Shown piece by piece: positions 14,188 through 33,736 of a DNA stretch of 64,000 bases. The position numbers and the translations under genes are program-made. Numbering within the stretch: the first letter of the stretch is position 1; every line of letters starts with the position of its first letter. The notes beneath the pieces were generated by a model, which worked only from the letters and a program-made list of their open reading frames with translations, had not been told where the DNA came from and made no database searches. The stretch spans positions 131,527 to 195,526 of the forward strand of contig BJGC01000001.1 of the NCBI GenBank assembly GCA_014190235.1, given 5' to 3'. The stretch is from Actinomycetes bacterium. GTDB lineage: Bacteria > Actinomycetota > Acidimicrobiia > Acidimicrobiales > Ilumatobacteraceae.

Positions 14188-15455
14188 CATCGTCAGTGCG
14201 CGCTATCAAAGCCTCGCGAACGCCTCTGGATTGCACTGTTCAGGTGCCGGGCTCAAAAAGCATTGCCAATCGAGCGTTGGTGTGTGCTGCGTTATCGCAT
14301 GGTGAATCAGTTATTAAAAACATCCCTGATGGGGACGATACTTTTGCGATGCTCGATGCTCTCAAGGCAATGGGCTTGCCGTGTCAGGTGGTAAATAATC
14401 AAGTAACAGTTATCGGCGGTGACCTCGGTCATTCCGACGTCACTCTCAACGCTCGTCTTGCCGGAACAACATCTAGATTTTTAACTGCATTCGCCGCAGT
14501 GCGGGCTGGTGTTACGACGATTGATGGCGATGATGCTTTGCGTCGACGACCAATGAACGACTTACACGAAGCACTGGGACAGATTGGCGCCGATATCAGG
14601 TATTCGGGCGCCAACGGACTGCTACCTGTCACTCTTGGGCCAAATATTGTAAGAAGTGGTGTCGTGAATATTCGTGGTGATATATCGAGTCAATTTATTT
14701 CTGCCCTGATGATGATTGGGCCAGTAATCGGAGGACTGACAATTCAGTTGACGTCACAGTTGGTGTCCCGGCCATATGTTGACATGACGCGAGTAGTGAT
14801 GGAGTCTTTTGGTGCCCGCGTCACAGTTTCTGAAAAAATAATTACGGTTCATGCGCACAGTTACACGCCGACGCGTTTTGTTGTGGAGCCAGATTTTTCT
14901 TCGGCTGCGGTTCCCATAGTGGCAACAACTATTCGAGGTGGCACGATTCGTTTGACAGGATTAGGTCTGGCCACTACCCAAAGCGATGCATGCATCCTTG
15001 ACATAGTTGAGCAGTCAGGTGCCATCGTAGAGCGTGAGGGTGATGACATCGTGGTCACCGCACAGGTGGGAAAAGTATTACAGCCGTTAGAACTGCATCT
15101 GGGCGATTCGTCTGATCTCGTGCCGATTGTGGCGATGTTGTGTCTCAGGGCAACAGGCAAGAGTTCAATTGATGGAGTTGGTTTTATTCGAGCAAAGGAG
15201 AGTGATCGTCTAGGCGACTTAGCTCGTGAAGTCGTCAAGTTGGGAGGGCGAATAGAAGTGCTTCCCGATGGTCTAGAGATTCAAGGTGTTGACGCCTTAA
15301 ACGGTCAGACTATGAATACATACGACGACCATCGGCTAGCAATGGCATTTGCAGTGCTCGGAACAGTTGTCAGCGGAATAAGCGTCAATGATGCGGCCGT
15401 TGTATCGAAGAGTTGGCCTAGTTTTTGGCTCGACATGACAGAGGTGCTTGGATGA
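14184..15455 (+). CDS. aroA: EPSP synthase (3-phosphoshikimate 1-carboxyvinyltransferase)
   Basis: Sixth step of the shikimate pathway, transferring enolpyruvate from PEP to shikimate 3-phosphate. Seen: VPGSKSIANRALVCAAL at residues 15-31, LAGTTSRFLTAFAA in place of the common NAGTAMR-type motif, DGDDALRRRPMNDL, IRAKESDRL and DDHRLAMAFAV near the C-terminus. 423 residues, complete. ATGA overlap with tyrA. In many actinobacteria cmk follows aroA; here a phosphatase-prenyltransferase pair follows instead. Confidence 0.95.
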   Translation: MTSSVRAIKASRTPLDCTVQVPGSKSIANRALVCAALSHGESVIKNIPDGDDTFAMLDALKAMGLPCQVVNNQVTVIGGDLGHSDVTLNARLAGTTSRFLTAFAAVRAGVTTIDGDDALRRRPMNDLHEALGQIGADIRYSGANGLLPVTLGPNIVRSGVVNIRGDISSQFISALMMIGPVIGGLTIQLTSQLVSRPYVDMTRVVMESFGARVTVSEKIITVHAHSYTPTRFVVEPDFSSAAVPIVATTIRGGTIRLTGLGLATTQSDACILDIVEQSGAIVEREGDDIVVTAQVGKVLQPLELHLGDSSDLVPIVAMLCLRATGKSSIDGVGFIRAKESDRLGDLAREVVKLGGRIEVLPDGLEIQGVDALNGQTMNTYDDHRLAMAFAVLGTVVSGISVNDAAVVSKSWPSFWLDMTEVLG

Positions 15456-16113
15456 CTCGACTGTGGGCACTACCGTATTTGGAGTGGAGACAGAGACAGT
15501 CGTAGCGTTTGACGTTGATAAGACACTCACCACAAAGGATTGCGTTTTGCCCTTTATGTCGCTTGTGGCGGGTCGATTATTTTTGGTGAGCGTCGTGCTC
15601 AGAAATCCCCGACAGTTGGCGTCCTTGCTCAGACACCGAGACAGAGATGGTCTAAAAAGGCTCTTTGTTCGTGCAGTTTTCATGGGCAGAGATGCGAGTG
15701 AGATTGATGAACTCGGCAAACAATTTGCGACCATTGTTCTAAAAAAGTGGATACGTGCGGATGTCGCACAACGACTGCGCTGGCACCAAAAAAACGGTCA
15801 CACCGTGCTGCTGGTGTCGGCATCACTTGATGCATACTTGGTCCCGTTAGCCAACACGATTGGCGCAGAGACAGTCCTGTGCACAACTCTTGAAACAGAC
15901 GAGAATGGCGTGCTCACCGGAAACCTCGTCGGCAACAATTGTCGTGCTCAACAAAAAGTAGATCGACTCGAGAAGTGGGCGAAAAATCGTGGGACCGCTG
16001 GTGATAATTGGCTCAGTATCGCCTACGGCGATTCCCGGGGTGACTTGGAGATGTTGTCGTACGCCAAAATTGGCCACAATGTCTCGCGGCAGATACTTGA
16101 GCCCGCATGCTAA
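15448..16113 (+). CDS. HAD-IB phosphatase, candidate DPPR phosphatase
   Basis: SerB-like HAD-IB hydrolase: motif I FDVDKTLTT at residues 21-29, motif II in VLLVSASLDAYL, motif IV AYGDSRGDLEML. 221 residues. The start is uncertain: TTG 15448 overlapping aroA, GTG 15463 or GTG 15484. Its end overlaps the start of the UbiA-type prenyltransferase by seven bases. Inference: in decaprenylphosphoryl-arabinose synthesis the 5'-phosphate of DPPR must be removed (a role assigned to Rv3807c in mycobacteria), and this coupled enzyme is a good candidate. HAD domains fused to UbiA domains are known elsewhere, which supports the pairing. Nothing in the sequence proves the substrate. Confidence 0.75.
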   Translation: MDDSTVGTTVFGVETETVVAFDVDKTLTTKDCVLPFMSLVAGRLFLVSVVLRNPRQLASLLRHRDRDGLKRLFVRAVFMGRDASEIDELGKQFATIVLKKWIRADVAQRLRWHQKNGHTVLLVSASLDAYLVPLANTIGAETVLCTTLETDENGVLTGNLVGNNCRAQQKVDRLEKWAKNRGTAGDNWLSIAYGDSRGDLEMLSYAKIGHNVSRQILEPAC

Positions 16114-16976
16114 GTGCCCTACTTCGCGAAGCTCGTCCCAAGCAATGGGTCAAGAATGTTTTGGTGTTTGCCGCACCCGGAGCACTCGGAGTTCTGGGGC
16201 ACTGGACATCGTTGGCTCCGACTCTCGTGATGTTTTGCGCATTATGTTTAACTGCGAGCGGAACCTACTTTTTAAATGACGTGCAAGATGTTGCCAACGA
16301 TCGACTTCATCCGAAAAAAAGTCGGAGACCAATTGCAGCGGGAGAAATCCCAATACCGTTTGCTCGATTGGTAGCGGCAGCACTGCTTGTGGTCGGGCCG
16401 TTATTGGCAGCAACAACTCGACCCGCTGCTGGTGTGATTGTTGCGCTGTATGCGGTGACGACAATTTCGTACAGTATGGGCTTGAAAAATATCGTACTGC
16501 TAGATCTTGTGATCGTTGCATCGGGCTTTGTCTTGCGAGCAGTTGCTGGAGCAGTCGGTACAGACACGCATATGTCAAAGTGGTTTGTCTTGTGTACGAG
16601 TTTTGGTTCCTTATTCATTATCGCCGGAAAACGTTTCGGAGAGATGCGAGAAATGGGCCAAGACGCTGTGCTTACTCGAGCTGCTCTCAAAGATTACTCA
16701 GAGACATTTTTACGAATGCTCGTCATCGTGGCATGTGGTGCGACCTTGCTCGCGTACTGTCTCTGGGCTTTCGAAAGCGCAGAGTCGCTTTCGACGAATT
16801 TCCCATATTTTGAACTGTCAATTGTTCCTTTGGCGCTGAGTGTTTTTAGATATTTAATGGTGATTGAGCAAGGTGATGCGTCAGCACCCGAAGATGTCTT
16901 TGCCACCGACAGAGCAATTCAAATGTATGGAGCGGTTTGGTTGATTGTTTATGGACTGGGTATATACGCCAGTTGA
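16107..16976 (+). CDS. ubiA: Decaprenyl-phosphate phosphoribosyltransferase (DPPR synthase), UbiA family
   Basis: Membrane prenyltransferase, orthologue-like to Rv3806c, that transfers phosphoribose from PRPP to decaprenyl phosphate in the first committed step to decaprenylphosphoryl arabinose. The aspartate motif NDVQDVANDRLHPKKSRRP (residues 50-68) is close to the mycobacterial one, and YSMGLKN and ASGFVLRAVAGA follow. About eight or nine hydrophobic segments span the 289 residues. The ATG overlaps the upstream phosphatase. The dprE1 and dprE2 genes 2-4 kb downstream support this role over quinone or haem prenylation. Confidence 0.88.
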   Translation: MLSALLREARPKQWVKNVLVFAAPGALGVLGHWTSLAPTLVMFCALCLTASGTYFLNDVQDVANDRLHPKKSRRPIAAGEIPIPFARLVAAALLVVGPLLAATTRPAAGVIVALYAVTTISYSMGLKNIVLLDLVIVASGFVLRAVAGAVGTDTHMSKWFVLCTSFGSLFIIAGKRFGEMREMGQDAVLTRAALKDYSETFLRMLVIVACGATLLAYCLWAFESAESLSTNFPYFELSIVPLALSVFRYLMVIEQGDASAPEDVFATDRAIQMYGAVWLIVYGLGIYAS

Positions 16977-16981
16977 CAGGC

Positions 16982-18187
16982 TCAACGATCAGTGCGTTTG
17001 TTGTTTCTGTGTTGTCTCTTCGTTTCATCCAAGAGCACGCCTAATGTGCGCGTCGCAGTCGCGTCCCACGTGAACGACTTGGCATGCATCAGTGCGCCGT
17101 CGGACAAGGTCTTTTGAAGTGGTGGTTCAAGTAAGACTCGCAATACAGCCAAGCCAAGATCATCAAGAGTGGGCACAATCAGTCCGCTGACATTATGTTT
17201 CACGGCTCCACGATGCCCATCATTATCAAGCACAACACACGGCGTGGCGCACGCTGCGGCTTCGGTTATTGTCATACCCCAGCCCTCTGAGTGAGATGCA
17301 CTTGTCAAGAGCCAAGAAGACTGATACAGCGAGACGAGTTCTTGATTTGAGATATGTCCGAGCAGCGAGACTTGCTGCGTGAGGCCTAAGTGATCAATGA
17401 GATGTTGTAGTTCTGCTCGCTGTGGACCGTCTCCAACGATCACAAGACGAGCATCTGGTAGCTGTTGCGTAATGATTTTCATCTGTCTGATGAGAGCGTC
17501 AAATTGCTTGACAGGAGCCAGTCGTCCAACGGCACAGATAAGCGGCGACGGGGATCGTGGTGCTGCATTCAAGTTGGTGAAAGAAGCGTCTATGCCGGGA
17601 GCGATCACATGAATGAGGTCTGACTTGTAGCCGTGGCTCAAGAGATGATCACTCGTTGCTGGCGCAAGCGTAATAACTGGATGTGCCTTGTAGAACGATG
17701 GCGCAATCGTGCCTTCAAGCAATCGACCAAAGGGAGCAAGTGGCGCTGGCAGTGATTCTTTCCACATATCGGTGTGAATGTGATGCAGCCACGTGACATG
17801 TGGACGCCGTGCCCATAACGATGAAAACCAAGGGACTCCATTCCAAATCTCTATGACAGCGTCGTAGTGGTGCTTGTTCAACAGTTGGTGGGTGATGACG
17901 CGCGGAAAGACTCCATATCTGCCTGCTCGTTGTACTACTTGATACCCATTTCGTTCAAACTCGCGAGTGCCTGATGCACTTGATGTTCGATGCGTGATGT
18001 GCAGGCCGGTGCTCGCCCAACGGGAAAAAACCTGATCCGCATGGACCTCGGAGCCTCCAGCATCTGGGTCGTCCAGATCACGCCACGCAAAACTTGCAAT
18101 CTGATGCACGCCAAGGCCCTGTAATTCTGTGGAGATCATCTCGAGCGTGGGCTGGATTGATTGGGGATTGACCGTGGGCTCAGGCAT
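16982..18187 (-). CDS. GT4-type glycosyltransferase
   Basis: 401-residue retaining glycosyltransferase with a GT-B fold. N-terminal FAWRDLDDPDAGGSEVHADQ (about residues 33-52) fits cytoplasmic GT4 enzymes of actinobacteria. The C-terminal nucleotide-sugar half has ICAVGRLAPVKQFDALI, LVIVGDGPQRAEL and SHSEGWGMTITEAAACATP with the Glu pair of the EX7E motif. There are no membrane spans. Donor and acceptor are unknown; the location between DPPR synthase and dprE1 suggests a role in the same envelope glycan. Divergent from the methyltransferase with 24 bases between starts; convergent with ubiA with a five-base gap. Confidence 0.85.
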   Translation of the reverse strand: MPEPTVNPQSIQPTLEMISTELQGLGVHQIASFAWRDLDDPDAGGSEVHADQVFSRWASTGLHITHRTSSASGTREFERNGYQVVQRAGRYGVFPRVITHQLLNKHHYDAVIEIWNGVPWFSSLWARRPHVTWLHHIHTDMWKESLPAPLAPFGRLLEGTIAPSFYKAHPVITLAPATSDHLLSHGYKSDLIHVIAPGIDASFTNLNAAPRSPSPLICAVGRLAPVKQFDALIRQMKIITQQLPDARLVIVGDGPQRAELQHLIDHLGLTQQVSLLGHISNQELVSLYQSSWLLTSASHSEGWGMTITEAAACATPCVVLDNDGHRGAVKHNVSGLIVPTLDDLGLAVLRVLLEPPLQKTLSDGALMHAKSFTWDATATRTLGVLLDETKRQHRNNKRTDR

Positions 18188-18195
18188 GTCCTTTC

Positions 18196-18201
18196 TATAC
18201 T
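18196..18201 (+). promoter_or_regulatory. Putative -10 box for the methyltransferase-dprE1-dprE2 run
   Basis: TATACT, close to the sigma-A consensus, lies ten bases before ATG 18212, so the leader would be only a few bases long. It sits in the 24-base divergent gap to the GT4 gene. Confidence 0.45.
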
Positions 18202-18211
18202 AGGAATCTCC

Positions 18212-18985
18212 ATGAAGCAGACAGGTGAACGCCCCCTCAAGGACAGTACGCCGGCGGCACTTTTGGCCCTTCATGACGCTGGGTATCGAGAAATTCGCGC
18301 CAGGATCACTGCAGGAGTCGTGCTTGACGTGGGTTGTGGCGTCGGAGACGAGTCAATTCGCCTAGCCGTGGGTGACAGCGTGGTGCTCGGCATTGATTAT
18401 GACGCTGACACCGCAGCGATGGCTCGCGGAAATGGCGTCCATGCAACGTGTGCTGATGGGTCAATTTTGCCCCTGCGGACGGCAAGCATTGATGCAGTGT
18501 GTTCAAGTCATATCATCGAGCATTTTGTCGATCCAGAGCCGCATGTGGCAGAAGTTGCCAGAGTGACCAAAGATGACGGATCAGTCTTTTTCTTAACCCC
18601 CAACGAACCCGCTGATTTTGAGAACCCATTTCATGTTCACTTGTTCACTCCGTCGTCTTTACAGACAATGTTGCGCAGATACTTTGCAGATGTTGAGGTA
18701 ATGGGTCTTGACGGCGACGACATCGTGCATGCTGATTTCGACTCTCGGCGTCAGACCGGAAAAAGACTATTGGCTCTTGACGTATTTGGTTTACGCAAAA
18801 AATTGCCAAGATCGTGGTATATCGCGCTTCATGCGTTTGGGCGCAGAGTTGTATATCCGTTCACGAATCGGCATACCTCAGATGGTCCATCTATTACAGA
18901 GAAAAATTTTTTCGTGACACCAATACTCAGCGACAAAACCCTTGTACTTTTTGCTATTGCAAAAAGACCCGTACGGTCACGCTGA
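18212..18985 (+). CDS. SAM-dependent methyltransferase (class I)
   Basis: 257-residue methyltransferase of the UbiE/Methyltransf_11 type. Motif I is VLDVGCGVGDESIRLA at about residues 38-53, then VLGIDYD, ADGSILPLRTASIDAV and SSHIIEHFVDPEPHVAE. ATG 18212 is chosen over an upstream frame extension that runs into the divergent gene. Four bases separate it from dprE1, so it is likely cotranscribed with the decaprenylphosphoryl-arabinose epimerase. The acceptor is unknown; a polyprenyl-linked glycan or lipid is a guess from context. Confidence 0.8.
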   Translation: MKQTGERPLKDSTPAALLALHDAGYREIRARITAGVVLDVGCGVGDESIRLAVGDSVVLGIDYDADTAAMARGNGVHATCADGSILPLRTASIDAVCSSHIIEHFVDPEPHVAEVARVTKDDGSVFFLTPNEPADFENPFHVHLFTPSSLQTMLRRYFADVEVMGLDGDDIVHADFDSRRQTGKRLLALDVFGLRKKLPRSWYIALHAFGRRVVYPFTNRHTSDGPSITEKNFFVTPILSDKTLVLFAIAKRPVRSR

Positions 18986-18989
18986 CATC

Positions 18990-20345
18990 ATGAGACAAAA
19001 ACTCTCTGGTTGGGGTCGCACAGCGTGGTCGTATTCTGAAGTAGTTACTCCTTCGTCATCGCAGGATATCTCAGCCGTAGTTGCAGCACCTCAACATCGT
19101 GGAGTTATTGCTCGAGGACTCGGCCGTTCGTACGGAGCAGCATCCCAAAATGCGGGCGGAACTGTTATTGAAATGGCCAATGATGAGGCGTCACATATTG
19201 CACTTGATCCTCGTACCGGAGTCGTCACAGCAGGAGCAGGAGTCAGCATTGACGCTTTGCTCAAGTACTGCGTGCCGCGTGGATGGTTTGTTCCTGTGAC
19301 GCCCGGAACTCGCTTCGTGACAATTGGCGGGGCAATCGGTTCTGATATTCACGGCAAGAATCATCACGTTGACGGAAGTTTTGGTGCTCACGTGCTGTCG
19401 ATGCGAGTGATGTTGTCAACGACAGAGATCATTGAATTATCACCGTCGATTCAACCCGATTGGTTTTGGGCCACTATCGCAGGTATGGGCTTGACTGGGA
19501 TCGTCATTGATGCAACATTTCAGATGTTGACAATTTCGTCATCAATGATGCACGTTGAGACAGAGCGACTACAGAACTTTGACGCTCTCATTGCGGCAAT
19601 GGGGTCATCTAGTGACGATGATGGTTATCGGTATTCGGTTGCATGGGTCGATCTTTTGGCAAGTGGCTCGTCACTAGGGCGTGGCGTTCTTAGCAGGGGA
19701 GAGCATGCAACGCGGGATCAGGATTCGCGTGCAGAGCCCCTGGTGTATGACCCCAAAGTCAGGATTTCAGCGCCACCTTGGGTTCCAAACGGTGTGATCA
19801 ATAAGTTGTCAATCAAGGCGTTTAACGAAGCGTGGTATCGCAAGGCTCCACGACGACGCACCGAAAGCATTGAGTCAATAGCAGGATTTTTTCACCCTCT
19901 TGACGGAGTTCGCCAATGGAATCGGCTGTACGGGTCGCAAGGCTTTATTCAGTACCAGTTCATCGTGCCGCTTGATCAAACAGATGTTCTGCGAACAGTC
20001 ATTGGTCAATTCGCAGACGCCGGCGTCGCTTCGTTTTTGGCCGTACTCAAACGAATGGGTGAATCGAATCTGGCGCCGATGTCGTTTCCGACAGCCGGTT
20101 GGACATTGACGTTGGACATAGCGGCTGGTGCGCGTGGCTTGCCCGAATTATTATCAGCAGTCGACACAGTGGTACTTGATGCTGGAGGGCGACATTACTT
20201 GGCCAAAGATGCGCACGTATCCCCGCGGGCCGTTCGCAAAGGCTACGACCGCTTTGAAGAATGGAAAACCATTCGAAATGAAATGGACCCAACAGGTGTC
20301 TGGAAAAGTGATTTGGGCCGACGGTTGGGTTTAGTCGATCCATGA
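18990..20345 (+). CDS. dprE1: Decaprenylphosphoryl-beta-D-ribose 2'-oxidase
   Basis: FAD-dependent oxidase that converts decaprenylphosphoryl ribose to the 2'-keto intermediate, the first half of epimerisation to DPA. SGWGRTAWSYSEV at the N-terminus, IARGLGRSYGAASQNAGG, PGTRFVTIGGAIGSDIHGKN and HHVDGSFGAHV closely follow the mycobacterial enzyme, including the histidine used for flavin attachment. 451 residues from ATG 18990. The position of the mycobacterial inhibitor-target cysteine (Cys387, in PGWNICVDFP) is threonine here (residue 374, in AGWTLTLDIA). dprE2 follows 22 bases later. Confidence 0.93.
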   Translation: MRQKLSGWGRTAWSYSEVVTPSSSQDISAVVAAPQHRGVIARGLGRSYGAASQNAGGTVIEMANDEASHIALDPRTGVVTAGAGVSIDALLKYCVPRGWFVPVTPGTRFVTIGGAIGSDIHGKNHHVDGSFGAHVLSMRVMLSTTEIIELSPSIQPDWFWATIAGMGLTGIVIDATFQMLTISSSMMHVETERLQNFDALIAAMGSSSDDDGYRYSVAWVDLLASGSSLGRGVLSRGEHATRDQDSRAEPLVYDPKVRISAPPWVPNGVINKLSIKAFNEAWYRKAPRRRTESIESIAGFFHPLDGVRQWNRLYGSQGFIQYQFIVPLDQTDVLRTVIGQFADAGVASFLAVLKRMGESNLAPMSFPTAGWTLTLDIAAGARGLPELLSAVDTVVLDAGGRHYLAKDAHVSPRAVRKGYDRFEEWKTIRNEMDPTGVWKSDLGRRLGLVDP

Positions 20346-20367
20346 AGCATAACGAGGGAGAAACTGT

Positions 20368-21132
20368 ATGAAAAACGGGCTTGGCGTTGCGCAAAGCATC
20401 GTGTTGTTTGGCGGCACGAGCGATATTGGGCAGGCAATCGTCTCAGACTTGCTTCGCCCCGGGGTGGCACATGTTGTGTTGGTGAGTCGCAATATCGAAG
20501 ATGCAGACCGTTTCGGTCAAGACATTACGCAGCGGTATCCAGATATCGATGTTCATCATGTTCGATTCGACGGTCAAGATGCAGCCGCAATGACACGAGT
20601 GGTGCAAGAAGTCGTTTCGCTTGTTGCAGATATTGATGTTGTGATAGTTGCTCAGGCACTGCTTGGTGACGGAATTGATTTTTTACAGAATCCACACGAG
20701 GCAATACCACTCGCAACGGTTAATTTCACGGCGACCATGACGCTGTTGCTCGCTCTTGGACACCAAGTAACCAAGCAGGGATACGGGCGCATCGTCCTGT
20801 TGTCGTCTGTTGCAGGAGAACGCGTACGACGCAGTAATGCAGTGTACGGCGCAACCAAGGCCGGTATTGATGCTTTCGCACTTGCGCTTGACCATGAGTT
20901 GTCCCCGAGTGGTGGCTCAATTCTTGTTGTTCGCCCGGGTTTTGTAACAAGCAAGATGACAGCCGGAATGGATAAAGCACCCTTCAGTGCAACGCCCGCA
21001 GCGGTAGCCAAAAGTGTTGCTCGGGCTATTGACTCAAACGCACGTATCATCTGGACCCCAAGCATTCTGCGTTGGGTTTTTATGGTGTTTCGACACCTAC
21101 CGACAGCGTTGTGGAGAAGGATGCCGTTTTAG
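20368..21132 (+). CDS. dprE2: Decaprenylphosphoryl-2-keto-ribose reductase
   Basis: Short-chain dehydrogenase that reduces the DprE1 product to decaprenylphosphoryl arabinose with NADH. NAD motif FGGTSDIGQAI at residues 14-24, catalytic SSVAGERVRRSNAVYGATK (Ser, Tyr and Lys), and a C-terminal hydrophobic stretch RWVFMVFRHLP that may touch the membrane. 254 residues. A GAGGGAG ribosome binding site precedes the ATG, which is unusual in this window. Its TAG overlaps the TAA of the convergent GT2 gene by three of four bases (TTAG). Confidence 0.92.
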   Translation: MKNGLGVAQSIVLFGGTSDIGQAIVSDLLRPGVAHVVLVSRNIEDADRFGQDITQRYPDIDVHHVRFDGQDAAAMTRVVQEVVSLVADIDVVIVAQALLGDGIDFLQNPHEAIPLATVNFTATMTLLLALGHQVTKQGYGRIVLLSSVAGERVRRSNAVYGATKAGIDAFALALDHELSPSGGSILVVRPGFVTSKMTAGMDKAPFSATPAAVAKSVARAIDSNARIIWTPSILRWVFMVFRHLPTALWRRMPF

Positions 21133-21887
21133 ACAGAATCCTGGCTTGTGATGTTCGTGACCACGACTCTTTTTCGTTTCACGATGTCACGCAAACCCCA
21201 GCGAGTGACGCGCCATAACGCCTCGGTCACAATTGACTGATTCATTTTTGATGATCCAGTCGTTCTTTCTCTAAAGACGATCGGTATCTCGACAATCCGA
21301 GCGCCTGCGCGAACCAGTGTGTACGTCGTCTCGATTTGAAATGTATATCCATCAGATTTGGTCTTAGTGAGCCCGAGACGGTCAACGGTGTCGGCGCGAA
21401 ATGCGCGAAAACCAGATGTGGCATCGTTGATTGCTAAGCCCAGAACTAAGGCGACATAGCGGTTTCCCCATCTAGACAAAAACAGACGCTTGCGGGGCCA
21501 GCCAATGATTCCGCCGCCGGGAATATATCGAGAACCGATCGCGAGATCTGCACCGAGAGTTGCTGCGCTCACAAGTTCTGGAAGCACTGCCGGATCGTGA
21601 GAGAGGTCTGCGTCAATTTCTACCAAGATGTCATATTGACGCTCAAGGCCCCATGCAAAAGCAATTCGGTATGCGTTGCCCAAACCATCTTTGGATTGAC
21701 GGCGAATCACGAAGACATTTCCTTCGATGCCATGAAGTTGTTCTGCAAGGTCAGGCGTTGCGTCCGTGCTGATGTCGTCAATGACAAGCACATCGGCTTG
21801 CGGTAAGGCTCGATGAATACGCTGGATCACGATGGCGATATTGCCAGCCTCGTTGTGTGTCGGAATGCAAACGAGTGTTTTAGTCAC
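21129..21887 (-). CDS. Polyprenol monophosphomannose synthase-like GT2
   Basis: GT2 glycosyltransferase of the dolichol-phosphate-mannose synthase type, expected to transfer mannose from GDP-mannose to polyprenyl phosphate on the cytoplasmic side. Seen: CIPTHNEAGNI at residues 7-17, DVLVIDDISTDAT, VEIDADLSHDP with the metal-binding DAD, GSRYIPGGGIIGWPRKR and FRERTTGSSKM. 252 residues with no C-terminal membrane domain, like the Ppm1 catalytic domain. It is the last gene of a minus-strand run with the AftD-like and PIG-V-like enzymes, which could use its product; its start overlaps the upstream gene by four bases. Confidence 0.9.
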   Translation of the reverse strand: MTKTLVCIPTHNEAGNIAIVIQRIHRALPQADVLVIDDISTDATPDLAEQLHGIEGNVFVIRRQSKDGLGNAYRIAFAWGLERQYDILVEIDADLSHDPAVLPELVSAATLGADLAIGSRYIPGGGIIGWPRKRLFLSRWGNRYVALVLGLAINDATSGFRAFRADTVDRLGLTKTKSDGYTFQIETTYTLVRAGARIVEIPIVFRERTTGSSKMNQSIVTEALWRVTRWGLRDIVKRKRVVVTNITSQDSV

Positions 21888-26047: not shown

Positions 26048-27252
26048 TGGCGGCTATTTCGAGTACGTTTGTTGACTATGCGCGAGAGCGGTTCTTCAAA
26101 TAGGTAGTAACTCAGAGCCGCAATCACAAACGTTGCAACTGTAGTGATAAGAACTCGACTCAGGATTTGAGAATCGAAAAACTCATAGGGCATCCATCGT
26201 TGAGCCCAGTTGCCGCTAATAAAGACTTGGTGCCACAAGTACACGCCATAGGAGACGATGCCGGCCCAGGCCAACCAGCGCTGTCCGAAGAATAGATGGG
26301 ATTTCGTTCGAGGACCTGGAAGTGCAAACGGTGCAACGAGAAATAATCCAATGAGACCATAGAAGCCTTGACGCAGTGTTTCGCGCACAAAACCGGAAGT
26401 GTCGAGACCGACAGCGAGTGAAAATTGAGTAGAGACAATCCAGAACAACGCGAGAGCCACGATCACCGAAGCGGTTGCCCAGCGACTAACAAAATTGCAA
26501 ATACGTTGTGCCCAGCGTTGGGTGTTTGAAAGTTCAGCAAGGATTGCTAAAGCGATGCCAAGAGCAAAGATGTCTACCAAAGAAGGCAACCAAAAAGGAA
26601 TTACCTTACTAAAAGATGGCTCAATAAAATAAACGGCAACTCGAAAACAAATGCTTGAGAGATACAGGCTTGCAGCAAAACATAGTGCGATGACACCGCG
26701 ATGCCTAAGTGGCTTGTTTTTTGTGAGAAGTAAAAGACCGTGTGCGAGCCCAGGAACTATGAGGTAGAAGCTCAGTTCGGTCGCAAGACTCCAGGATTGC
26801 GTAATGCCCGAGATCAGATGAGTAGTGGAATAGATGTTCAGAAGAAATGCGGAGAAGAAAAAACCGCTCGTACCCCCAACTTGAATTGCGCCAATAAGCA
26901 ACATCACAATCAGTGCGAGCCAGTATGCAGGCACAATACGAACGAGACGTTTACGCCAGAACTGTAACGAAGAAGGGAGAGGCTGTTCGTTTAAGATCGA
27001 CCGAGCAAATGGCTTGAATAATAAGTATCCACTCAAGATGAAAAAGATTGGCACCCCAACATCAAATCGCCCGGTGAAGCGTCCCCAGAATCTATAGGAG
27101 GCATTAGACGTTATTCCAGCGGCAAACATAATGTGATGGAGCACGATGAGATACGCAGCCATGGCTCGCACCCCGTCAAGGGCCAAGTTATGTTGTGTTA
27201 GTAGAGTATCCGTGCGGCGTGGTGTAACTATTGCCTGTAACCGGTCTCGCAC
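26044..27252 (-). CDS. Acyltransferase 3 family membrane protein
   Basis: 402-residue integral membrane acyltransferase (OafA/AT3 family) that typically O-acylates exported glycans. The N-terminus LALDGVRAMAAYLIVLHHI has the conserved Asp-Arg region and histidine, followed by FFILSGYLLFKPF and about ten hydrophobic segments. The GTG start is seven bases after a TAGTAT hexamer that overlaps the stop of the upstream aftD copy. It sits between two AftD-like genes, so acylation of an arabinan-like polymer is a reasonable inference. Confidence 0.85.
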   Translation of the reverse strand: MRDRLQAIVTPRRTDTLLTQHNLALDGVRAMAAYLIVLHHIMFAAGITSNASYRFWGRFTGRFDVGVPIFFILSGYLLFKPFARSILNEQPLPSSLQFWRKRLVRIVPAYWLALIVMLLIGAIQVGGTSGFFFSAFLLNIYSTTHLISGITQSWSLATELSFYLIVPGLAHGLLLLTKNKPLRHRGVIALCFAASLYLSSICFRVAVYFIEPSFSKVIPFWLPSLVDIFALGIALAILAELSNTQRWAQRICNFVSRWATASVIVALALFWIVSTQFSLAVGLDTSGFVRETLRQGFYGLIGLFLVAPFALPGPRTKSHLFFGQRWLAWAGIVSYGVYLWHQVFISGNWAQRWMPYEFFDSQILSRVLITTVATFVIAALSYYLFEEPLSRIVNKRTRNSRQ

Positions 27253-27259
27253 AGTAGTG

Positions 27260-27265
27260 ATACTA
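27260..27265 (-). promoter_or_regulatory. Putative internal leaderless -10 box of the acyltransferase gene
   Basis: On the minus strand TAGTAT, which contains the TAG stop of the upstream aftD copy, is followed by seven bases and the GTG at 27252. It would let the acyltransferase-aftD1-GT2 part be transcribed separately. Confidence 0.4.
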
Positions 27266-30200
27266 ATTGCTTGGTTGTCGTGGTGTCGTGAGTGTCACAA
27301 GGACCGCAAAAACTATGAGGGCATACATCAGGCCCTGATGGCTAGATGCAGTATTGGTCGACCAGTCAAATCGTGGCGTGAGATCAGAGTCTTTGATATT
27401 GGCAAAAGCCCCCCAGATGCGATAAGCAGGCAATCCTGCGGCGACGACAATCAACACGGTGCGCCACCTTGTAATGACAAGAACCGCACAAAGTGCCAGA
27501 AGCCCCTTCCATGACGGGGTATCAACGACCAATGCAGCGAGCAACCCAATGGCGACAACCGCAAATACTCGAGTGCGCATCGACAGCGGTGGATTGCTCA
27601 CATATTGCGAGGATGTGCGCACAGGCAGACTTGGGGATCTTCTGCATCTCCACAAAATGCCCAAGCAAAGAAGCACTGTCAAGGCTGAAAGCAACTGTGC
27701 CAGATAGGCGTATCGCTGTGGTGTAAACGAGAGGGTGATCCTTGCGGGCGCATCATGCGCGTCGATGAACCACGCGTTGAAACCACCATCAGCTCGAACA
27801 TGGTTTTGAATTTTCTTGCCGTTCAGAGAAGCGATCCAACCCGAAGAGTATCCCTCCCCAAAGACAAACCATCGCGTGGTAGCACTCGGCGGCAGTGTCG
27901 CGGTGCGGTGTGTAGGCGAGCCGGACATGGAAAGATTGGTCTGCGTTGCAAGTGGCCAAGATAATTGGCTGATGAGTGCTACGTCATCAATTGAAATCGG
28001 CGTCTCATTGTAAGAAGACGTGCGTATCGTGTGGTCTCCCGCATCGAGTGTCAATTTTTGGTCGTACTGTAGAGATGTAGTTGGCTTGGTGACATCTCCA
28101 CTAAAAGTGACACTGGTGGTCATCTGGCTTGAATCAAGATCAAAGGTGACTTGTTGCGGCTCCTTGGGCAGAGTTGGATCAACTTGCATGATGCCTGCGC
28201 CTTTGATTGAAAAAATTTCTAACGGATACAGCATGTTCTTGCCGAAGCGGGAGTCATAAAATATCCTGTCAGTTGAAGATTTTGCAGTGAGTGTCCACCG
28301 ACCAACACTCAACGCATTTGTGTTGATGGTGCTTACTTTATCTGTGACAGAAATAGCGATATCTAAAGATGTCGTTCCGTCAGTGATTGTTGCGTTCGTG
28401 ATCGCGTTACAATTTGCCAAGGAGCACTGAGTTAAAAATATCTCAGGAGTCTTGCTTGTTACATCAAACGAAATCGAAGCAGCCGTGGTGTGTCCGACTC
28501 GGCTCTGCCATGACGTTGCATCGCTTGAATCAGTGGCATACCACCCTGCATGTTCGAACGAGCCTCGAGTGTGTTCGGACGCAGTAGTAGTGACGCCGAG
28601 AAGTTTGGCGGTGAGTTTCTCAGGCGAATCAGCATGAAGTGATGCGCCAAGCACGACATCGTATTGCTGCGAAGATGCCAACGTAAAGGTGCGGTTCAGA
28701 AGTAATTCTGGGTCATTTCGCCACCATCTTTGTGGAGATGCCTGTTGACGAGACATGACAATTGATACGGGTGTAGTCGCGTTTGCAACAGAGGTGGCAT
28801 CACTAGGCATGAGGGTCTTTTCGATGGTAAAAGACTTGTTATCGACAACTTCAGCAAAACCAACGCCGTCAAGACTTGCCTGCTGCGTTCCTTTGATCCA
28901 GTCCAATCCGATCAGGGCAATAAATACATCAGTTGCAGGCTGAGATAGCGGGACGATCTGTCCGGTTGTCCGTGACTCCGGAGTCATCGGGACCTCGGTC
29001 CAAGTTTTTTGATCTAGAGAAACGACGACCAAGTTGAGCCAACGATTCGGATTATTTTGGGGTTGCAATAATTTGAGGTGGTCTAGGGGTTGTCGTGATT
29101 GAAGATGCAACGTTGCGCCGTACGGGTCTGCGTACGCACCTGCTGTCCAGGCCGTGAGTGGATCTCCGTCGAGGGCAAAAAAGGGACGCGACTCTGGCCA
29201 ATATGACAACGGTGTTCCATACGAAGATGCACTGGCTGTCACATTTCCAGATTGAGAAACAGTTGTGTTGGATAGGTTGTCACGTGTTTCAAAGATCGGC
29301 AGTCTTCTATCGGATGGGTCCACAACAGAGAGAACACCCGGTGATGAAGTATCTTGCGAGTAGCCAAGTGTGTCAATCGAGGATCTCCAGTGTCTTTGCT
29401 GCAAGCGATTTGAGTCCGTTACAACTAGAGGACTGTTCTGTAGTGCGAGTGTCAGCTCCTGAGGCGTCATGTCTGCGCTGTACCGCATCAGTGAGTCGTT
29501 GACGAGACCATGTTGTGCAGCGTTCACAACTCCTGCCCCCGATCCAGAGAGGATCATGGCATTGGTCGTTGTTCGAGCCACGGACGAGTCAGCAATCTTG
29601 GCGACACTCGTTTTTGACGTACCAGAAGAAAACAATCGTGATACCCCTTGATCAAGGTCGGCAAGTAGTGACGATGGATCTGCACTCATAAAACGCTGCG
29701 TGTCTAAGTCATGGGGGACAAAAAGCGAACTCACTCCGAGTTTTTTGGCCGTTGACGACAAGGCTTGTGAGTGAAGCGTTTGGTTTTGTACGGCATCGTC
29801 GAGGCTAAAAAGTAAATCCATGACTTGGGGCTGACCGAGTGGCAAAAGATCGCGAGTGATAATGGGTGTGTCTGTGACTGTGGGTAACGCAGGGTCTACT
29901 GTGAACCCCCAGTTGTATGCGCCAAACTCTTGGCCAGGCACCTGCAAGACGCGCGATGACGCACCAGAGATCTCATCAATCAAAGATCCGGCTTCGTGCC
30001 AAGCCCTTGGCGCAGACTGCTCACGGCTCAGGTTGGGATCTGTTGTTCCGGTCGTCCACAATGTGGGCATGGCGCTGAACACAAGCATTGATGCAAGGGC
30101 AATAATGGCGAGATGCCCGAGTGGACGCCGTTCGAGGGCTTTCATTGAAAGAATTTTTTGAACAAGTGCGCCCACACCAAATGCAATACCTAATAACAAC

Positions 30201-31315
30201 ACTGGATACGCGCGCGTGCTGCTGCGCAACGCAAGTGCTGCAGAAGACCCCTGATGGTTGGCAATCGGAGACATCAGACGCGAGGCTGATAACAACGGGT
30301 AGACACCAACGGCGAGTACCGCACCCACCAGCACAAGCCAGGCTGTAACGCGTCGCGCCAGTAAGCGCGTCAGTGCGATTCCCAAAATACCCAAAGTAGG
30401 TATTGCTAATGTCAGAAAAATTGTAAGTGGCGAAGACAAGTAGCGAGATGCACTAGAGGGAGCTGCCGCGCCCTGTTCTGTGACGTAGTTGAGCCAGTAG
30501 CCCATGCCTCGAATCACTTCTGCGGATGTACTGGTAGAGGATACTGATTCAAGCGTCTCTGAATAGGAAAGTACTTTTGCGCCGTAGCGATTTTGTATCG
30601 CGATCATTGTGGCCCACCACAACGAGACCCCGCCGCACAAAACCACAGATCGGCTGACTAGCACTACAGCGCCTCTCAGTCGGATCCGACGATCTACAAG
30701 TGCGTCGATTATGAAGAGTAACGGGGCTGGTGCGATCATGATCAATGCTGTTGCATTGATTCCTCCAACGGAAAATACAATAAGAGCCAGAAGTGCGGGG
30801 TATCTCCATCCTGAATTTCGAATCGCCAATAATGTGATGCCGCAGATCCAGCCAAGTCCGACCCAAGGTAAGAGCAATACAGAAGTGCGGGTTTGATAAG
30901 CCAAAACAAAGGGAGTGACTTGATACGCAACGGCAGCAATAAATGCGCCCGAACGCTGTAGGCCTAGGTGCTTCGCACACCATCTCACTCCAAGCCCAGC
31001 GAGCAAGAAGAGAGTTGCAACCCAGATGCGCTGAATAAGCCACGGTGAAATGTGCATGGAGTGAAGCAACAGATAGAACGGCCCACTTGGCCATAGATAC
31101 CCGACAGCCTGGTGCGGCACGTATCCACCAAATTGCGATGGATCCCATGCGTACTGCGCATTCCTAAGAAGTTTCCAAGGATTGCTGGTGAGGTAGAGCT
31201 TTGTGTCTGAGTTTGTAACGCCCGAGTGCAAGAGAACTGTCGGAATAAAAGCAATGAGCGTTAGCGCCAAACACTCAACGCGGCGCGATAGCCCGATGAG
31301 AAATGCGGCTCTCAC
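27263..31315 (-). CDS. AftD-like arabinofuranosyltransferase (DUF3367), copy 2
   Basis: 1350-residue paralogue of the enzyme at 21884-26047 with the same plan: TNSDTKLYLTSNPWKLLRN in the first loop, VGYLWPSGPFYLLLH, many N-terminal membrane spans, then a long extracytoplasmic part with discoidin-like modules (FALDGDPLTAWTAGAY; WYATDSSDATSWQSRVG) and C-terminal spans. Similarity to copy 1 is obvious in the N-terminal loop but the proteins are far diverged, so this is an old duplication with probably distinct acceptors. Its start overlaps the PIG-V-like gene by four bases. Confidence 0.82.
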   Translation of the reverse strand: MRAAFLIGLSRRVECLALTLIAFIPTVLLHSGVTNSDTKLYLTSNPWKLLRNAQYAWDPSQFGGYVPHQAVGYLWPSGPFYLLLHSMHISPWLIQRIWVATLFLLAGLGVRWCAKHLGLQRSGAFIAAVAYQVTPFVLAYQTRTSVLLLPWVGLGWICGITLLAIRNSGWRYPALLALIVFSVGGINATALIMIAPAPLLFIIDALVDRRIRLRGAVVLVSRSVVLCGGVSLWWATMIAIQNRYGAKVLSYSETLESVSSTSTSAEVIRGMGYWLNYVTEQGAAAPSSASRYLSSPLTIFLTLAIPTLGILGIALTRLLARRVTAWLVLVGAVLAVGVYPLLSASRLMSPIANHQGSSAALALRSSTRAYPVLLLGIAFGVGALVQKILSMKALERRPLGHLAIIALASMLVFSAMPTLWTTGTTDPNLSREQSAPRAWHEAGSLIDEISGASSRVLQVPGQEFGAYNWGFTVDPALPTVTDTPIITRDLLPLGQPQVMDLLFSLDDAVQNQTLHSQALSSTAKKLGVSSLFVPHDLDTQRFMSADPSSLLADLDQGVSRLFSSGTSKTSVAKIADSSVARTTTNAMILSGSGAGVVNAAQHGLVNDSLMRYSADMTPQELTLALQNSPLVVTDSNRLQQRHWRSSIDTLGYSQDTSSPGVLSVVDPSDRRLPIFETRDNLSNTTVSQSGNVTASASSYGTPLSYWPESRPFFALDGDPLTAWTAGAYADPYGATLHLQSRQPLDHLKLLQPQNNPNRWLNLVVVSLDQKTWTEVPMTPESRTTGQIVPLSQPATDVFIALIGLDWIKGTQQASLDGVGFAEVVDNKSFTIEKTLMPSDATSVANATTPVSIVMSRQQASPQRWWRNDPELLLNRTFTLASSQQYDVVLGASLHADSPEKLTAKLLGVTTTASEHTRGSFEHAGWYATDSSDATSWQSRVGHTTAASISFDVTSKTPEIFLTQCSLANCNAITNATITDGTTSLDIAISVTDKVSTINTNALSVGRWTLTAKSSTDRIFYDSRFGKNMLYPLEIFSIKGAGIMQVDPTLPKEPQQVTFDLDSSQMTTSVTFSGDVTKPTTSLQYDQKLTLDAGDHTIRTSSYNETPISIDDVALISQLSWPLATQTNLSMSGSPTHRTATLPPSATTRWFVFGEGYSSGWIASLNGKKIQNHVRADGGFNAWFIDAHDAPARITLSFTPQRYAYLAQLLSALTVLLCLGILWRCRRSPSLPVRTSSQYVSNPPLSMRTRVFAVVAIGLLAALVVDTPSWKGLLALCAVLVITRWRTVLIVVAAGLPAYRIWGAFANIKDSDLTPRFDWSTNTASSHQGLMYALIVFAVLVTLTTPRQPSN

Positions 31316-32535
31316 GGAATTGCGCCGTAGACCCCGTAGAGGGCTGAAATAAAGACAAGCCCCGCGCTGAGCAATACTACGAGCAGAGTCCAGTATCTGT
31401 CATCCTCATCTCGCAACATGGCCGCTACAGAGATAAAGAGGGGGAAAGCTGTGTACAAAAAACGCGGCCGAGCAGTGACGGTGGCCGGAATTAGCATCAG
31501 CACCAGGATGCCGATTGAGTACCAGAAAAAGATTGATGGCAGTTTGTGTTTACGAGCGGCATACAAGAGAAATATTGTGACGAATAATGATGCTGCGGTG
31601 ATGAGGCTTGTCGGCGAGGAAAAAGGCGAACGAAAAAAGTCAAAGGTGCGAACAACAGCGGTTCCGCCAAAACTTGTGCTTTCTTGCCATGCTTCGTTTT
31701 GAACTCGAAACCAAGCCCACGGCTCGTTGGTGTGATGCCGCAGGAAAAGCATGAATCCGATGTAGCCCCATGGCGCAAGTAATGGTGCAAGTAGAGAAGA
31801 GTAATCTCGACGTTCTTTTATTGCAATCAGACATGCGATCGCACACGCCAAACACAATGCAATACCGTTAGGTCGCGCGAGGCCCGCCAGTAACGCAAAG
31901 ACTCCTGCATACACCCAAGCGTGGCGAACAAGTGCCAGTAGACATAAAGCGGCGAGACACAGCATGATCGCCTCTGAGTAGGCAAATGATAAAACGAAAC
32001 TTCCTGGGAAAAGACACAGAAGAACCATTGTTCTTTCGGCGACTTTGGCATTGAAAAAAATAAGAGCAATACGGCCAGCCAAATAAATAAAAACTCCACC
32101 AAGAATGATGTTGAGCAAGAGGGACACCCAGACGGGACCACCAGGAAGCAATAAATCAAAAAAGTGGACAAGACGCGGATACAGCGGAAAAAACGCGGCG
32201 CGTGCGTCTGAGACAAAGTACGTGACATCGGGTTGAATTACACGCGGATAACCTTTGCGGACGACCTCGAGATACCAATGCCCATCCCACATGTCGAGGT
32301 ACTCGATCAACATCTTGAGACCGTTTTTGGCTGGTTTGCCTTCTTCTTTGTCCTGAAGTGCCCAGGTTGTAACAGCGATTGCGCCGCCGGCTAGAACAAA
32401 AAGGCGTGATACCAAATACGCAACAAGGGCATAGAGACGAGCCCGTTTCCAATCAATAGATGATGACGTTGCAGTGTTGCGAAGAAAACGCGGAAAACTC
32501 AGCATGGAGGACTCGGACGTAGATACAGATGTCAT
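31312..32535 (-). CDS. PIG-V-like polyprenyl-phosphate-mannose mannosyltransferase
   Basis: GT-C membrane mannosyltransferase resembling GPI mannosyltransferase 2 (PIG-V, GT76). Seen: YLDMWDGHWYLEVVRKGYP with the Asp-rich first loop, DARAAFFPLYPRLVHFF, and LSFAYSEAIMLCLAALCLLA; about ten hydrophobic segments in 407 residues. ATG 32535 is chosen because a longer frame would run to the end of the OppF gene with a Cys-rich, non-hydrophobic extension. In other actinobacteria relatives are thought to use polyprenyl-phosphate mannose outside the membrane; the GT2 at 21129 could supply that donor. Confidence 0.82.
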   Translation of the reverse strand: MTSVSTSESSMLSFPRFLRNTATSSSIDWKRARLYALVAYLVSRLFVLAGGAIAVTTWALQDKEEGKPAKNGLKMLIEYLDMWDGHWYLEVVRKGYPRVIQPDVTYFVSDARAAFFPLYPRLVHFFDLLLPGGPVWVSLLLNIILGGVFIYLAGRIALIFFNAKVAERTMVLLCLFPGSFVLSFAYSEAIMLCLAALCLLALVRHAWVYAGVFALLAGLARPNGIALCLACAIACLIAIKERRDYSSLLAPLLAPWGYIGFMLFLRHHTNEPWAWFRVQNEAWQESTSFGGTAVVRTFDFFRSPFSSPTSLITAASLFVTIFLLYAARKHKLPSIFFWYSIGILVLMLIPATVTARPRFLYTAFPLFISVAAMLRDEDDRYWTLLVVLLSAGLVFISALYGVYGAIP

Positions 32536-32597
32536 GGGCGGTGTATTCCGTTGACAACAATAGGCGCTGATGCTGTCAGCATCGTGGTATTGGTTGT

Positions 32598-33723: not shown

Positions 33724-33729
33724 TAGTTT
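33724..33729 (+). promoter_or_regulatory. Putative leaderless -10 box of the phosphoribosyltransferase
   Basis: TAGTTT is followed by seven bases and GTG 33737. It overlaps an alternative TTG start at 33728, and so favours the GTG. Confidence 0.45.
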
Positions 33730-33736
33730 GTCAGTT

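What the first reader, a model, noticed from the sequence alone, without database searches (positions are those of the whole stretch)
15448..32535. A decaprenylphosphoryl-arabinose and arabinan-type gene cluster in a genome that looks acidimicrobial
UbiA-type DPPR synthase, DprE1, DprE2 and two AftD-like enzymes are together here, along with a polyprenol-phosphate-mannose synthase, a PIG-V-like mannosyltransferase, an AT3 acyltransferase, a GT4 and a methyltransferase. The cluster is best known from Mycobacteriales, where it makes arabinogalactan and lipoarabinomannan. There are no mycolate, embABC or galactan polymerase genes in view, so a different arabinose-containing polymer or lipoglycan is plausible.
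Basis: partly seen in the sequence, partly recalled or inferred. Interest (0 to 1): 0.6.

Follow-up and report, generated by a model that had tools for sequence, protein, structure and literature searches.

The report
Arabinose-adding envelope gene cluster in Ilumatobacteraceae
An uncultured actinobacterium far from the mycobacteria carries a full set of genes for making lipid-linked arabinose plus several membrane enzymes that could attach it, yet it seems to lack key genes of both mycobacterial arabinose polymers, so it probably decorates a different, undescribed surface sugar.

Summary
Window 15448-32739 encodes a DPA-donor cassette (HAD phosphatase, DPPR synthase, DprE1, DprE2; the last three over curated cut-offs), two AftD-family GT-Cs, a PIG-V-like GT-C, GT2, GT4, methyltransferase and AT3. 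The organism falls with Ilumatobacteraceae. Comparison splits the locus into modules. (1) The DPA cassette: in 148 genomes of the order, DPPR synthase and DprE1 co-occur (74 both, 2 synthase only). (2) PIG-V-like GT-C with AftD2, seen only where DprE1 is: in 81 family genomes the PIG-V-like ortholog is in 57, all with DprE1. (3) GT4/AftD1, largely independent of DPA: 31 of 84 AftD-bearing order genomes lack both DPPR synthase and DprE1. Five of nine genomes in the window's genus have no AftD but keep a compact DPA-cassette/PIG-V-like locus under purifying selection; a sixth (G556) has the same compact locus with the AftD genes on other contigs. That makes the PIG-V-like protein, rather than AftD, the best candidate core arabinofuranosyltransferase. 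Emb and AftA are absent from the window's genome; MptB from all 81 family genomes. Arabinogalactan or LAM as known is therefore unlikely. The product is inferred, not shown.

The parts
15448..16113 (+). HAD-IB phosphatase; proposed 5'-phosphatase of polyprenyl-phospho-phosphoribose (in place of the unrelated Rv3807c); exact start uncertain
   Evidence: TIGR01490 147.6 bits over cut-off 98.3; overlaps the start of the DPPR synthase gene; present in compact loci L190, L193, L196, L197, L072. Function inferred.
16107..16976 (+). UbiA-type decaprenyl-phosphate phosphoribosyltransferase (DPPR synthase)
   Evidence: NF008978 313.6 bits over cut-off 207; PDB 8j8j 186 bits, keeping the NDVxDxxxDRxHPxKxxRPIAAG and AGKRxxE stretches
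16982..18187 (-). GT4 glycosyltransferase, module largely independent of DPA
   Evidence: PF00534/PF13692; homologue over 200 bits in the fetched stretch of 33 of 42 AftD1-type rows other than the window
18212..18985 (+). class I methyltransferase (frame opens at 18161; first ATG at 18212)
   Evidence: PF08241 60.8 bits; homologue over 180 bits in the fetched stretch of 9 of 42 AftD1-type rows
18990..20345 (+). DprE1, decaprenylphosphoryl-ribose oxidase (frame opens at 18942; homology begins about the ATG at 18990)
   Evidence: NF053785 548.6 bits over cut-off 500; PDB 4aut 369 bits
20368..21132 (+). DprE2, decaprenylphosphoryl-2-keto-erythro-pentose reductase
   Evidence: NF053786 253.5 bits over cut-off 250, SDR with a YxxxK stretch
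21129..21887 (-). GT2, polyprenyl-phosphate-hexose-synthase-like; overlaps AftD1 by 4 bases
   Evidence: PF00535 87.4 bits; best NCBIfam match AglJ 75.8 of cut-off 325; not in the compact loci
21884..26047 (-). AftD1: GT-C_AftD-family glycosyltransferase with CBM
   Evidence: PF11847 323 bits, PF24607 31 bits; PDB 6w98 127.5 bits; clade A1 in the tree; D31, E247 and R358 conserved in 80, 82 and 82 of 82 rows
26044..27252 (-). AT3 membrane O-acyltransferase
   Evidence: PF01757 85.7 bits; not in the compact loci
27263..31315 (-). AftD2: second GT-C_AftD-family glycosyltransferase; in a clade seen only in DPA-bearing genomes
   Evidence: PF11847 266 bits; PDB 6w98 112 bits; clade A2, PIG-V-like gene in the fetched stretch of 12 of 12 other A2 rows, 11 loci
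31312..32535 (-). PIG-V-like GT-C, 407 aa; proposed core arabinofuranosyltransferase of the DPA cassette
   Evidence: PF04188 21.5 of cut-off 22.4 bits; WDG and WY invariant in 18 of 18 rows; in 57 of 81 family genomes, all with DprE1; the GT-C kept beside the DPA cassette in the compact loci

Best explanation
The locus makes polyprenyl-phosphate-arabinofuranose and uses it outside the membrane to add D-arabinofuranose to an envelope glycan that is neither mycobacterial arabinogalactan nor lipoarabinomannan. PRPP is loaded on polyprenyl phosphate by the UbiA enzyme, the HAD enzyme removes the 5'-phosphate, DprE1/DprE2 invert C2 (well supported by family identity, except the HAD step, which is inferred). 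The lipid donor is flipped by an unidentified carrier. The PIG-V-like GT-C (31312-32535) is the constant arabinofuranosyltransferase of the system (inferred from co-occurrence and retention). AftD2 extends or branches the product, also with DPA (inferred). GT4, MT, GT2 and AftD1 form a second, separable module that builds or modifies the acceptor glycan; AftD1 may use a different polyprenyl-phosphate sugar, perhaps the one made by GT2 (inferred). AT3 O-acylates the product (inferred).
For: Family identity of DPPR synthase, DprE1 and DprE2 over curated cut-offs and PDB matches. DPPR synthase and DprE1 coupled in the order sample: 74 both, 2 synthase only, 0 DprE1 only, 72 neither, n=148. Within the family (81 genomes) AftD and DprE1: 52 both, 0 AftD only, 8 DprE1 only, 21 neither; PIG-V-like ortholog (381 bits or more): 57 with DprE1, 0 without, 3 DprE1 only, 21 neither. 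Compact loci: G558, G559, G560 and G562 have HAD-UbiA-DprE1-DprE2-PIGV with aroA on one side; G561, L071 and L072 show the part that their contigs hold; GT4, MT, GT2, AftD1, AT3 and AftD2 are not in these stretches, and AftD is absent genome-wide from the five G genomes. Kept genes have no in-frame stops, and dN/dS is 0.009-0.07 for UbiA, DprE1, DprE2 and PIGV where estimable, 0.146 for the one estimable HAD pair. G556 has the same compact locus while GT4-MT-GT2-AftD1 and AftD2 lie on two other contigs, so the modules are separable. A Nitriliruptorales record (L133) has PIGV-UbiA-DprE1-DprE2 in one direction and no AftD match in 13.6 kb. No Emb or AftA in the genome; no MptB in 81 of 81.
Against: No sugar analysis was found for this organism and no activity of these proteins was tested. 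Three DprE1-positive family genomes (G534, G565, G582) lack both AftD and the PIG-V-like ortholog; in G582 the DPA cassette stands next to aroA and no GT-C was recognised among the neighbours examined. So another DPA user can exist, and could also exist elsewhere in the AftD-less genomes. The history of the genus is not settled: G556, with AftD, falls among the AftD-less genomes in an unresolved part of the tree. The PIG-V-like protein resembles mannosyltransferases by name, its AlphaFold model is poor (mean pLDDT 55.9) and its Foldseek matches to GT-C enzymes are weak (none at E<=0.001). No GtrA/SMR-type flippase was found in the genome. dS is near or beyond saturation. Absences rest on draft genomes (the window's is 96% complete).
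Confidence: 0.57

Rival explanations
1. A lipoarabinomannan-like lipoglycan: the PIG-V-like protein is a mannosyltransferase fed by polyprenyl-phosphate-mannose from the GT2, and AftD1/AftD2 put arabinan on the mannan.
For: GT2 resembles polyprenyl-phosphate-hexose synthases and the GT-C resembles PIG-V. Phosphatidylinositol mannosides are listed for several type strains of the related family Iamiaceae (PMC12263773, section 15 read).
Against: MptB match in 0 of 81 family genomes, with the C. glutamicum control positive; Emb absent from the window's genome. The compact loci of AftD-less genomes have no GT2 in the stretch but keep the PIG-V-like gene beside the DPA cassette. PIM genes, and GT2 elsewhere in those genomes, were not searched.
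Confidence: 0.18
2. An arabinogalactan-type wall polymer made by divergent enzymes.
For: DPA cassette and AftD family are shared with Mycobacteriales.
Against: AftA N-domain (galactan priming) in 0 of 27 genomes of the window's class including its own, while the mycobacterial-side genome G337 and the C. glutamicum control are positive (G209, with a mycobacterial-type AftD, was negative too); Emb absent from the window's genome. GlfT was not searched.
Confidence: 0.07
3. Arabinosylation of a protein (as proposed for Pseudomonas type IV pilin) rather than of a polysaccharide; the AftD/GT4 module is unrelated and only neighbouring.
For: A compact cassette with one GT-C is what a simple decorating system needs; PMC11127046 (passages and Discussion part 1) mentions proposed pilin glycosylation with Araf in Pseudomonas. 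GT4-AftD1 is largely independent of DPA and stands apart in G556.
Against: No pilin or other evident acceptor among the frames examined in the locus; AftD2, with an F5/8-type C match just under the cut-off (26.0 of 28.2 bits), is tied to DPA in this family.
Confidence: 0.11
4. The lipid-linked pentose is used by AftD alone; the PIG-V-like gene is a bystander.
For: AftD and DprE1 are coupled within the family (52/0/8/21).
Against: Five congeners have no AftD, yet DPA genes and the PIG-V-like gene stay together and under purifying selection.
Confidence: 0.07

Closest known systems
Mycobacterial DPA pathway (Rv3806c, Rv3807c, DprE1, DprE2)
   Same: DPPR synthase, DprE1 and DprE2 homologues close together, over curated cut-offs
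   Different: HAD-IB phosphatase at the place of the unrelated Rv3807c; DprE1 has Thr at the Cys387 position; no Emb or AftA; no GtrA-type flippase found
AftD (GT-C_AftD, PF11847; M. abscessus 6w98)
   Same: Same family, same invariant residues in the GT-C part, a CBM match in AftD1
   Different: Two separate clades outside the clade of the Mycobacteriales-side rows; the clade of AftD1 is common in genomes without the DPA pathway
Three-component extracytoplasmic pentofuranose systems (Kelly et al. 2024, PMC11127046)
   Same: UbiA-type polyprenyl phosphoribose synthase, HAD phosphatase, pentose epimerase, a GT-C; DprE1/E2 homologues where arabinose is added
   Different: Separate HAD gene instead of a fused domain; PIG-V-like GT-C, not compared with the described GT136; no flippase identified; actinobacterium; AftD-bearing elaboration
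PIG-V / GT87 GT-C enzymes
   Same: Weak Pfam similarity; the Nitriliruptorales homologue passes the GT87 cut-off (30.5 of 25 bits)
   Different: The window protein is below the PIG-V cut-off and no solved GT-C structure matches its profile by sequence

Membership tests
DPA biosynthesis cassette | DPPR synthase homologue over curated cut-off | tested here: met
   NF008978 313.6 of 207 bits; PDB 8j8j
DPA biosynthesis cassette | DprE1 and DprE2 over curated cut-offs | tested here: met
   548.6 of 500 and 253.5 of 250 bits
DPA biosynthesis cassette | Rv3807c-type phosphatase | not tested
   No genome search for it; a HAD-IB phosphatase sits at that place
DPA biosynthesis cassette | Product is polyprenyl-phosphate-arabinose | not testable with these tools
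   Needs lipid analysis
AftD family (PF11847) | GT-C_AftD domain over cut-off, conserved residues of the GT-C part | tested here: met
   323 and 266 of 26 bits; one E and one R invariant in 82 of 82 rows, a D in 80 of 82
AftD as arabinan marker | Occurs only with the DPA pathway | tested here: not met
   Order: 31 of 84 AftD genomes lack DPPR synthase and DprE1. Within the family it is met: 0 of 52 lack DprE1
Arabinogalactan biosynthesis | AftA and Emb transferases | tested here: not met
   PF04602 0 in own genome, control positive; PF12250 0 in own genome, control positive
Arabinogalactan biosynthesis | GlfT galactan polymerase | not tested
Lipoarabinomannan biosynthesis | MptB-type mannan polymerase | tested here: not met
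   NF038066 (MptB) 0 of 81 family genomes, control positive
Lipoarabinomannan biosynthesis | PimA-PimE | not tested
Three-component pentofuranose system | Polyprenyl phosphoribose synthase, HAD phosphatase, epimerase, GT-C together | tested here: met
   Compact loci L190, L193/L194, L196, L197/L198; L072 and L208 with one gene cut by the contig end. HAD identity with the described phosphatase domain not tested
Three-component pentofuranose system | Flippase (MATE or SMR/GtrA) | tested here: inconclusive
   GtrA family 0 in own genome; MATE family not searched
Three-component pentofuranose system | GT-C of family GT136 | not tested
   No GT136 sequence was at hand
PIG-V mannosyltransferase (PF04188) | Score over Pfam cut-off | tested here: not met
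   21.5 of 22.4 bits with the trimmed start, 22.0 with the long frame

The most novel reading that the evidence does not exclude
The PIG-V-like protein founds a new family of arabinofuranosyltransferases that, with the DPA cassette, forms a minimal arabinose-adding system in Ilumatobacteraceae and in Nitriliruptorales; its product is an undescribed envelope glycan, and AftD1-type enzymes of the order use a donor other than DPA, so that AftD is not inherently an arabinosyltransferase.
Probability: 0.4. Interest if true: 0.75.

Novelty: new variant of a known kind. Interest (0 to 1): 0.55.

Why it matters
DprE1 and the arabinosyltransferases are tuberculosis drug targets and are usually discussed as part of the mycolate-bearing wall. 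Here the donor pathway stands in an actinobacterial class far from Mycobacteriales, without the transferases that prime and build arabinogalactan and without the lipomannan polymerase MptB. That points to a more general use of lipid-linked arabinose, offers a candidate new arabinosyltransferase that can be tested in a five-gene system, and warns that an AftD annotation alone does not mean arabinan.

Tried and rejected
Tried without result: a search of solved structures with the PIG-V-like profile gave only chance-level matches, best a riboflavin transporter. The AlphaFold model from a five-row alignment was poor (mean pLDDT 55.9); its Foldseek list is headed by GT-C enzymes (oligosaccharyltransferases, ALG9, further down Emb and PimE) but nothing reaches E 0.001, so it is only weak support. 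GT2 as the fixed partner of AftD1: a homologue over 180 bits is in the fetched stretch of 11 of 42 AftD1-type rows, against 33 of 42 for GT4, so the idea that AftD1 uses the GT2 product remains a guess. One search listed only columns conserved in 90% of all AftD rows; no search was made for residues that separate AftD1 of DPA-positive from DPA-negative genomes. Literature: no paper of the open-licence library holds both 'Acidimicrob' and 'decaprenylphosphoryl'; searches showed none on this locus among the rows listed, which for searches are only part of the papers found. Cell sugars of Ilumatobacter were not found there; Actinospongicola (Iamiaceae) is reported with rhamnose, ribose, mannose and galactose and without arabinose (PMC12263773, passages and section 15), but whether it carries the locus was not tested.

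Fetching G556 showed the same compact DPA/PIG-V-like locus inside that clade, with GT4-MT-GT2-AftD1 and AftD2 on other contigs; the clade is now 8 rows (99/99), its inner order is unresolved, and the AftD status of the genomes behind L071 and L072 was not searched. The confidence of the best explanation was lowered from 0.60 to 0.57 for this.

Counting rules and rows set aside. Order sample (148 genomes, minimum completeness 85): DprE1 counted from 336 bits, with G424 accepted as a split match (311 and 266 bits, 580.5 joined); G479 (217 bits) counted negative. DPPR synthase: 76 counted, 73 over the cut-off and 3 at 173-200 bits. AftD: all 84 genomes of the tally, among them some partial matches and the weak G472 (49.5 bits), which is one of the 31. 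Family sample: G553 (DprE1 244.9 bits with 4 in-frame stops) and G549 (two pieces on two contigs) counted positive. Tree: 9 of the 20 Mycobacteriales-side loci were used; of 93 matches 82 rows were kept after dropping short ones and those loci; quick method, SH-aLRT only. In one search the 42 AftD1-type rows include two contigs counted twice (L048/L118, L051/L080) and two rows of one genome (L156). Genome counts are not independent events: the 21 family genomes without DprE1 fall in 5 genus codes.
Full report
WHAT IS THERE. Eleven reading frames fill 15448-32739. The donor half is HAD phosphatase, DPPR synthase, methyltransferase, DprE1 and DprE2 on the plus strand, with the GT4 on the minus strand between DPPR synthase and methyltransferase. 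The transfer half, all on the minus strand, is PIG-V-like GT-C, AftD2, AT3, AftD1, GT2 in order of transcription, with 4-base overlaps except a short gap between AftD2 and AT3. DPPR synthase, DprE1 and DprE2 pass NCBIfam's curated cut-offs. The two large proteins are members of Pfam's GT-C_AftD family and match the solved AftD entries 6w98 and 6wbx (that these are M. abscessus AftD is recalled). Flanks include prephenate dehydrogenase and aroA on one side, ABC transporter genes and a phosphoribosyltransferase-domain gene on the other.

WHO CARRIES IT. The window lies in a 2.02 Mb, 55-contig assembly, 96% complete. Its family code f1 is Ilumatobacteraceae by inference: two f1 genomes have contigs of the same length as, and AftD rows identical to, records titled Ilumatobacteraceae (JABSQH010000075.1 and JAFMEI010000032.1). 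The nearest named DprE1 is 87% identical, in record SXUP01000049.1, whose fetched DNA is part of the congener G289; it repeats the donor half gene for gene. DprE1 itself is widely spread: the named records include Streptomyces, Streptacidiphilus, Blastococcus, a Nitriliruptorales assembly and Acidithrix.

MODULES. In 148 genomes of the order, DPPR synthase and DprE1 travel together (74 both, 2 synthase only, 0 DprE1 only, 72 neither), but AftD does not follow them: 51 with DprE1, 33 without, and 31 of 84 AftD genomes lack DPPR synthase as well. The tree of AftD GT-C parts (82 rows) has a clade with the Mycobacteriales-side rows and acidimicrobial members, a wide clade A1 (43 rows) that holds the window's AftD1 and mixes DPA-positive and DPA-negative genomes, a four-row group, and clade A2 (13 rows) with the window's AftD2, seen only in the family and in G398. 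A GT4 homologue lies in the fetched stretch of 33 of 42 A1 rows; the PIG-V-like gene in that of 12 of 12 A2 rows (window not counted). Every genome with an A2 row has DprE1.

INSIDE THE FAMILY THE COUPLING IS TIGHT. Of 81 genomes, 52 have AftD and DprE1, none AftD alone, 8 DprE1 alone, 21 neither. The PIG-V-like ortholog (381 bits or more) is in 57, every one with DprE1; 3 have DprE1 without it and 21 have neither. In genus code g3 five genomes have all three genes and three have none. These are counts of genomes, not of independent events. Order-wide, matches over 500 bits occur in 6 of 148 genomes, five of the family and G398, all with DprE1; weaker homologues, up to 294 bits, occur with and without DprE1.

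THE WINDOW'S GENUS SEPARATES THE MODULES. Five of nine genomes in the genus (G558-G562) have DprE1 and the PIG-V-like gene but no AftD match. In G558, G559, G560 and G562 the order is aroA, HAD, UbiA, DprE1, DprE2 and then the PIG-V-like gene on the other strand, followed at some distance by the phosphoribosyltransferase-domain gene of the window's other flank; GT4 and MT (between UbiA and DprE1 in the window) and GT2, AftD1, AT3 and AftD2 (between DprE2 and the PIG-V-like gene) are not there, nor is the neighbouring ABC gene. The short contigs of G561, L071 and L072 show the same as far as they reach. G556 has the same compact locus on one contig and GT4, MT, GT2 and AftD1 on another and an AftD2-type gene on a third. 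In the DprE1 tree these eight form a clade (99/99) whose inner order is unresolved, next to G557 (92/87) and then the window and G289, which have the full locus. Loss of the AftD block in the five is the likely direction, since full loci surround the clade, but the number of events is open. The kept genes have no in-frame stops; dN/dS is 0.009-0.035 for UbiA, DprE1 and DprE2, 0.019-0.07 for the PIG-V-like gene and 0.146 for the one estimable HAD pair, with dS high and for some pairs beyond estimation. A selected DPA pathway needs a user, and the GT-C left beside it is the PIG-V-like protein. A Nitriliruptorales record shows the same partnership in another class: PIGV, UbiA, DprE1, DprE2 in one direction, without an AftD match on its 13.6 kb. 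Against this, G582 has the DPA cassette beside aroA with neither AftD nor the PIG-V-like ortholog in the genome.

WHAT POLYMER. The window's genome has no Emb match, no AftA N-domain and no GtrA-type flippase. MptB has no match in any of the 81 family genomes while the C. glutamicum control is positive. This speaks against arabinogalactan and lipoarabinomannan as known, though drafts and divergent enzymes leave room, and GlfT, AftB, AftC, Pim and mycolate genes were not searched. The arrangement works like the three-component pentofuranose systems of PMC11127046 (abstract, passages, Discussion part 1), where DprE1/E2 homologues mark arabinose, but no flippase was identified and the GT-C was not compared with GT136. 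Membership in that system is therefore not claimed.

SHOWN AND INFERRED. Shown: gene content, family membership of the donor enzymes and AftDs, the co-occurrence counts, the separable modules and the retained compact loci. Inferred: the HAD step, the PIG-V-like protein as arabinosyltransferase, DPA as donor of AftD2, another donor for AftD1, acylation by AT3, and the nature of the acceptor.

Noticed in passing
window 18990-20345 (DprE1): The residue aligned with the benzothiazinone-binding Cys387/Cys394 is Thr; in the 8-row alignment 5 rows have Ala, 2 Thr and 1 Cys. Replacing that Cys gives benzothiazinone resistance in mycobacteria (PMC3206020, passages), so insensitivity is likely.
   Followed up: partly
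G398, G406, G407, G408, G424, G376, G435, G440, G446, G459, G467, G476, G489, G515: 14 of 148 order genomes carry a mycobacterial-type AftD (over 620 bits); 5 of the 14 (G406, G435, G440, G459, G515) lack both DPPR synthase and DprE1.
   Followed up: partly
G398 contig C13, L170 and L171: One genome outside the family holds four AftD genes of different clades within about 42 kb, including an AftD2-type gene with the PIG-V-like gene, which suggests transfer of that pair.
   Followed up: no
G556: L208, L209, L210: Compact DPA/PIG-V-like locus on one contig and the AftD genes on others within one genome; rearrangement, regain or binning error is open.
   Followed up: partly
L203:17820-19118: G557, same genus with the full locus, has an extra PMT_2-type GT-C between AftD1 and AT3.
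   Followed up: no
window 33728-34231: A phosphoribosyltransferase-domain gene (PF00156) beside the locus is 87-90% conserved at the compact loci of the genus; any link to PRPP use is untested.
   Followed up: no
G553:C14:18867-19910: DprE1 match with 3 TGA and 1 TAG inside, in a genome that keeps AftD and the PIG-V-like gene: decay or sequencing error.
   Followed up: no
G121 contigs C190 and C143: Two DPPR synthase/DprE1 pairs in one genome, the second more divergent.
   Followed up: no
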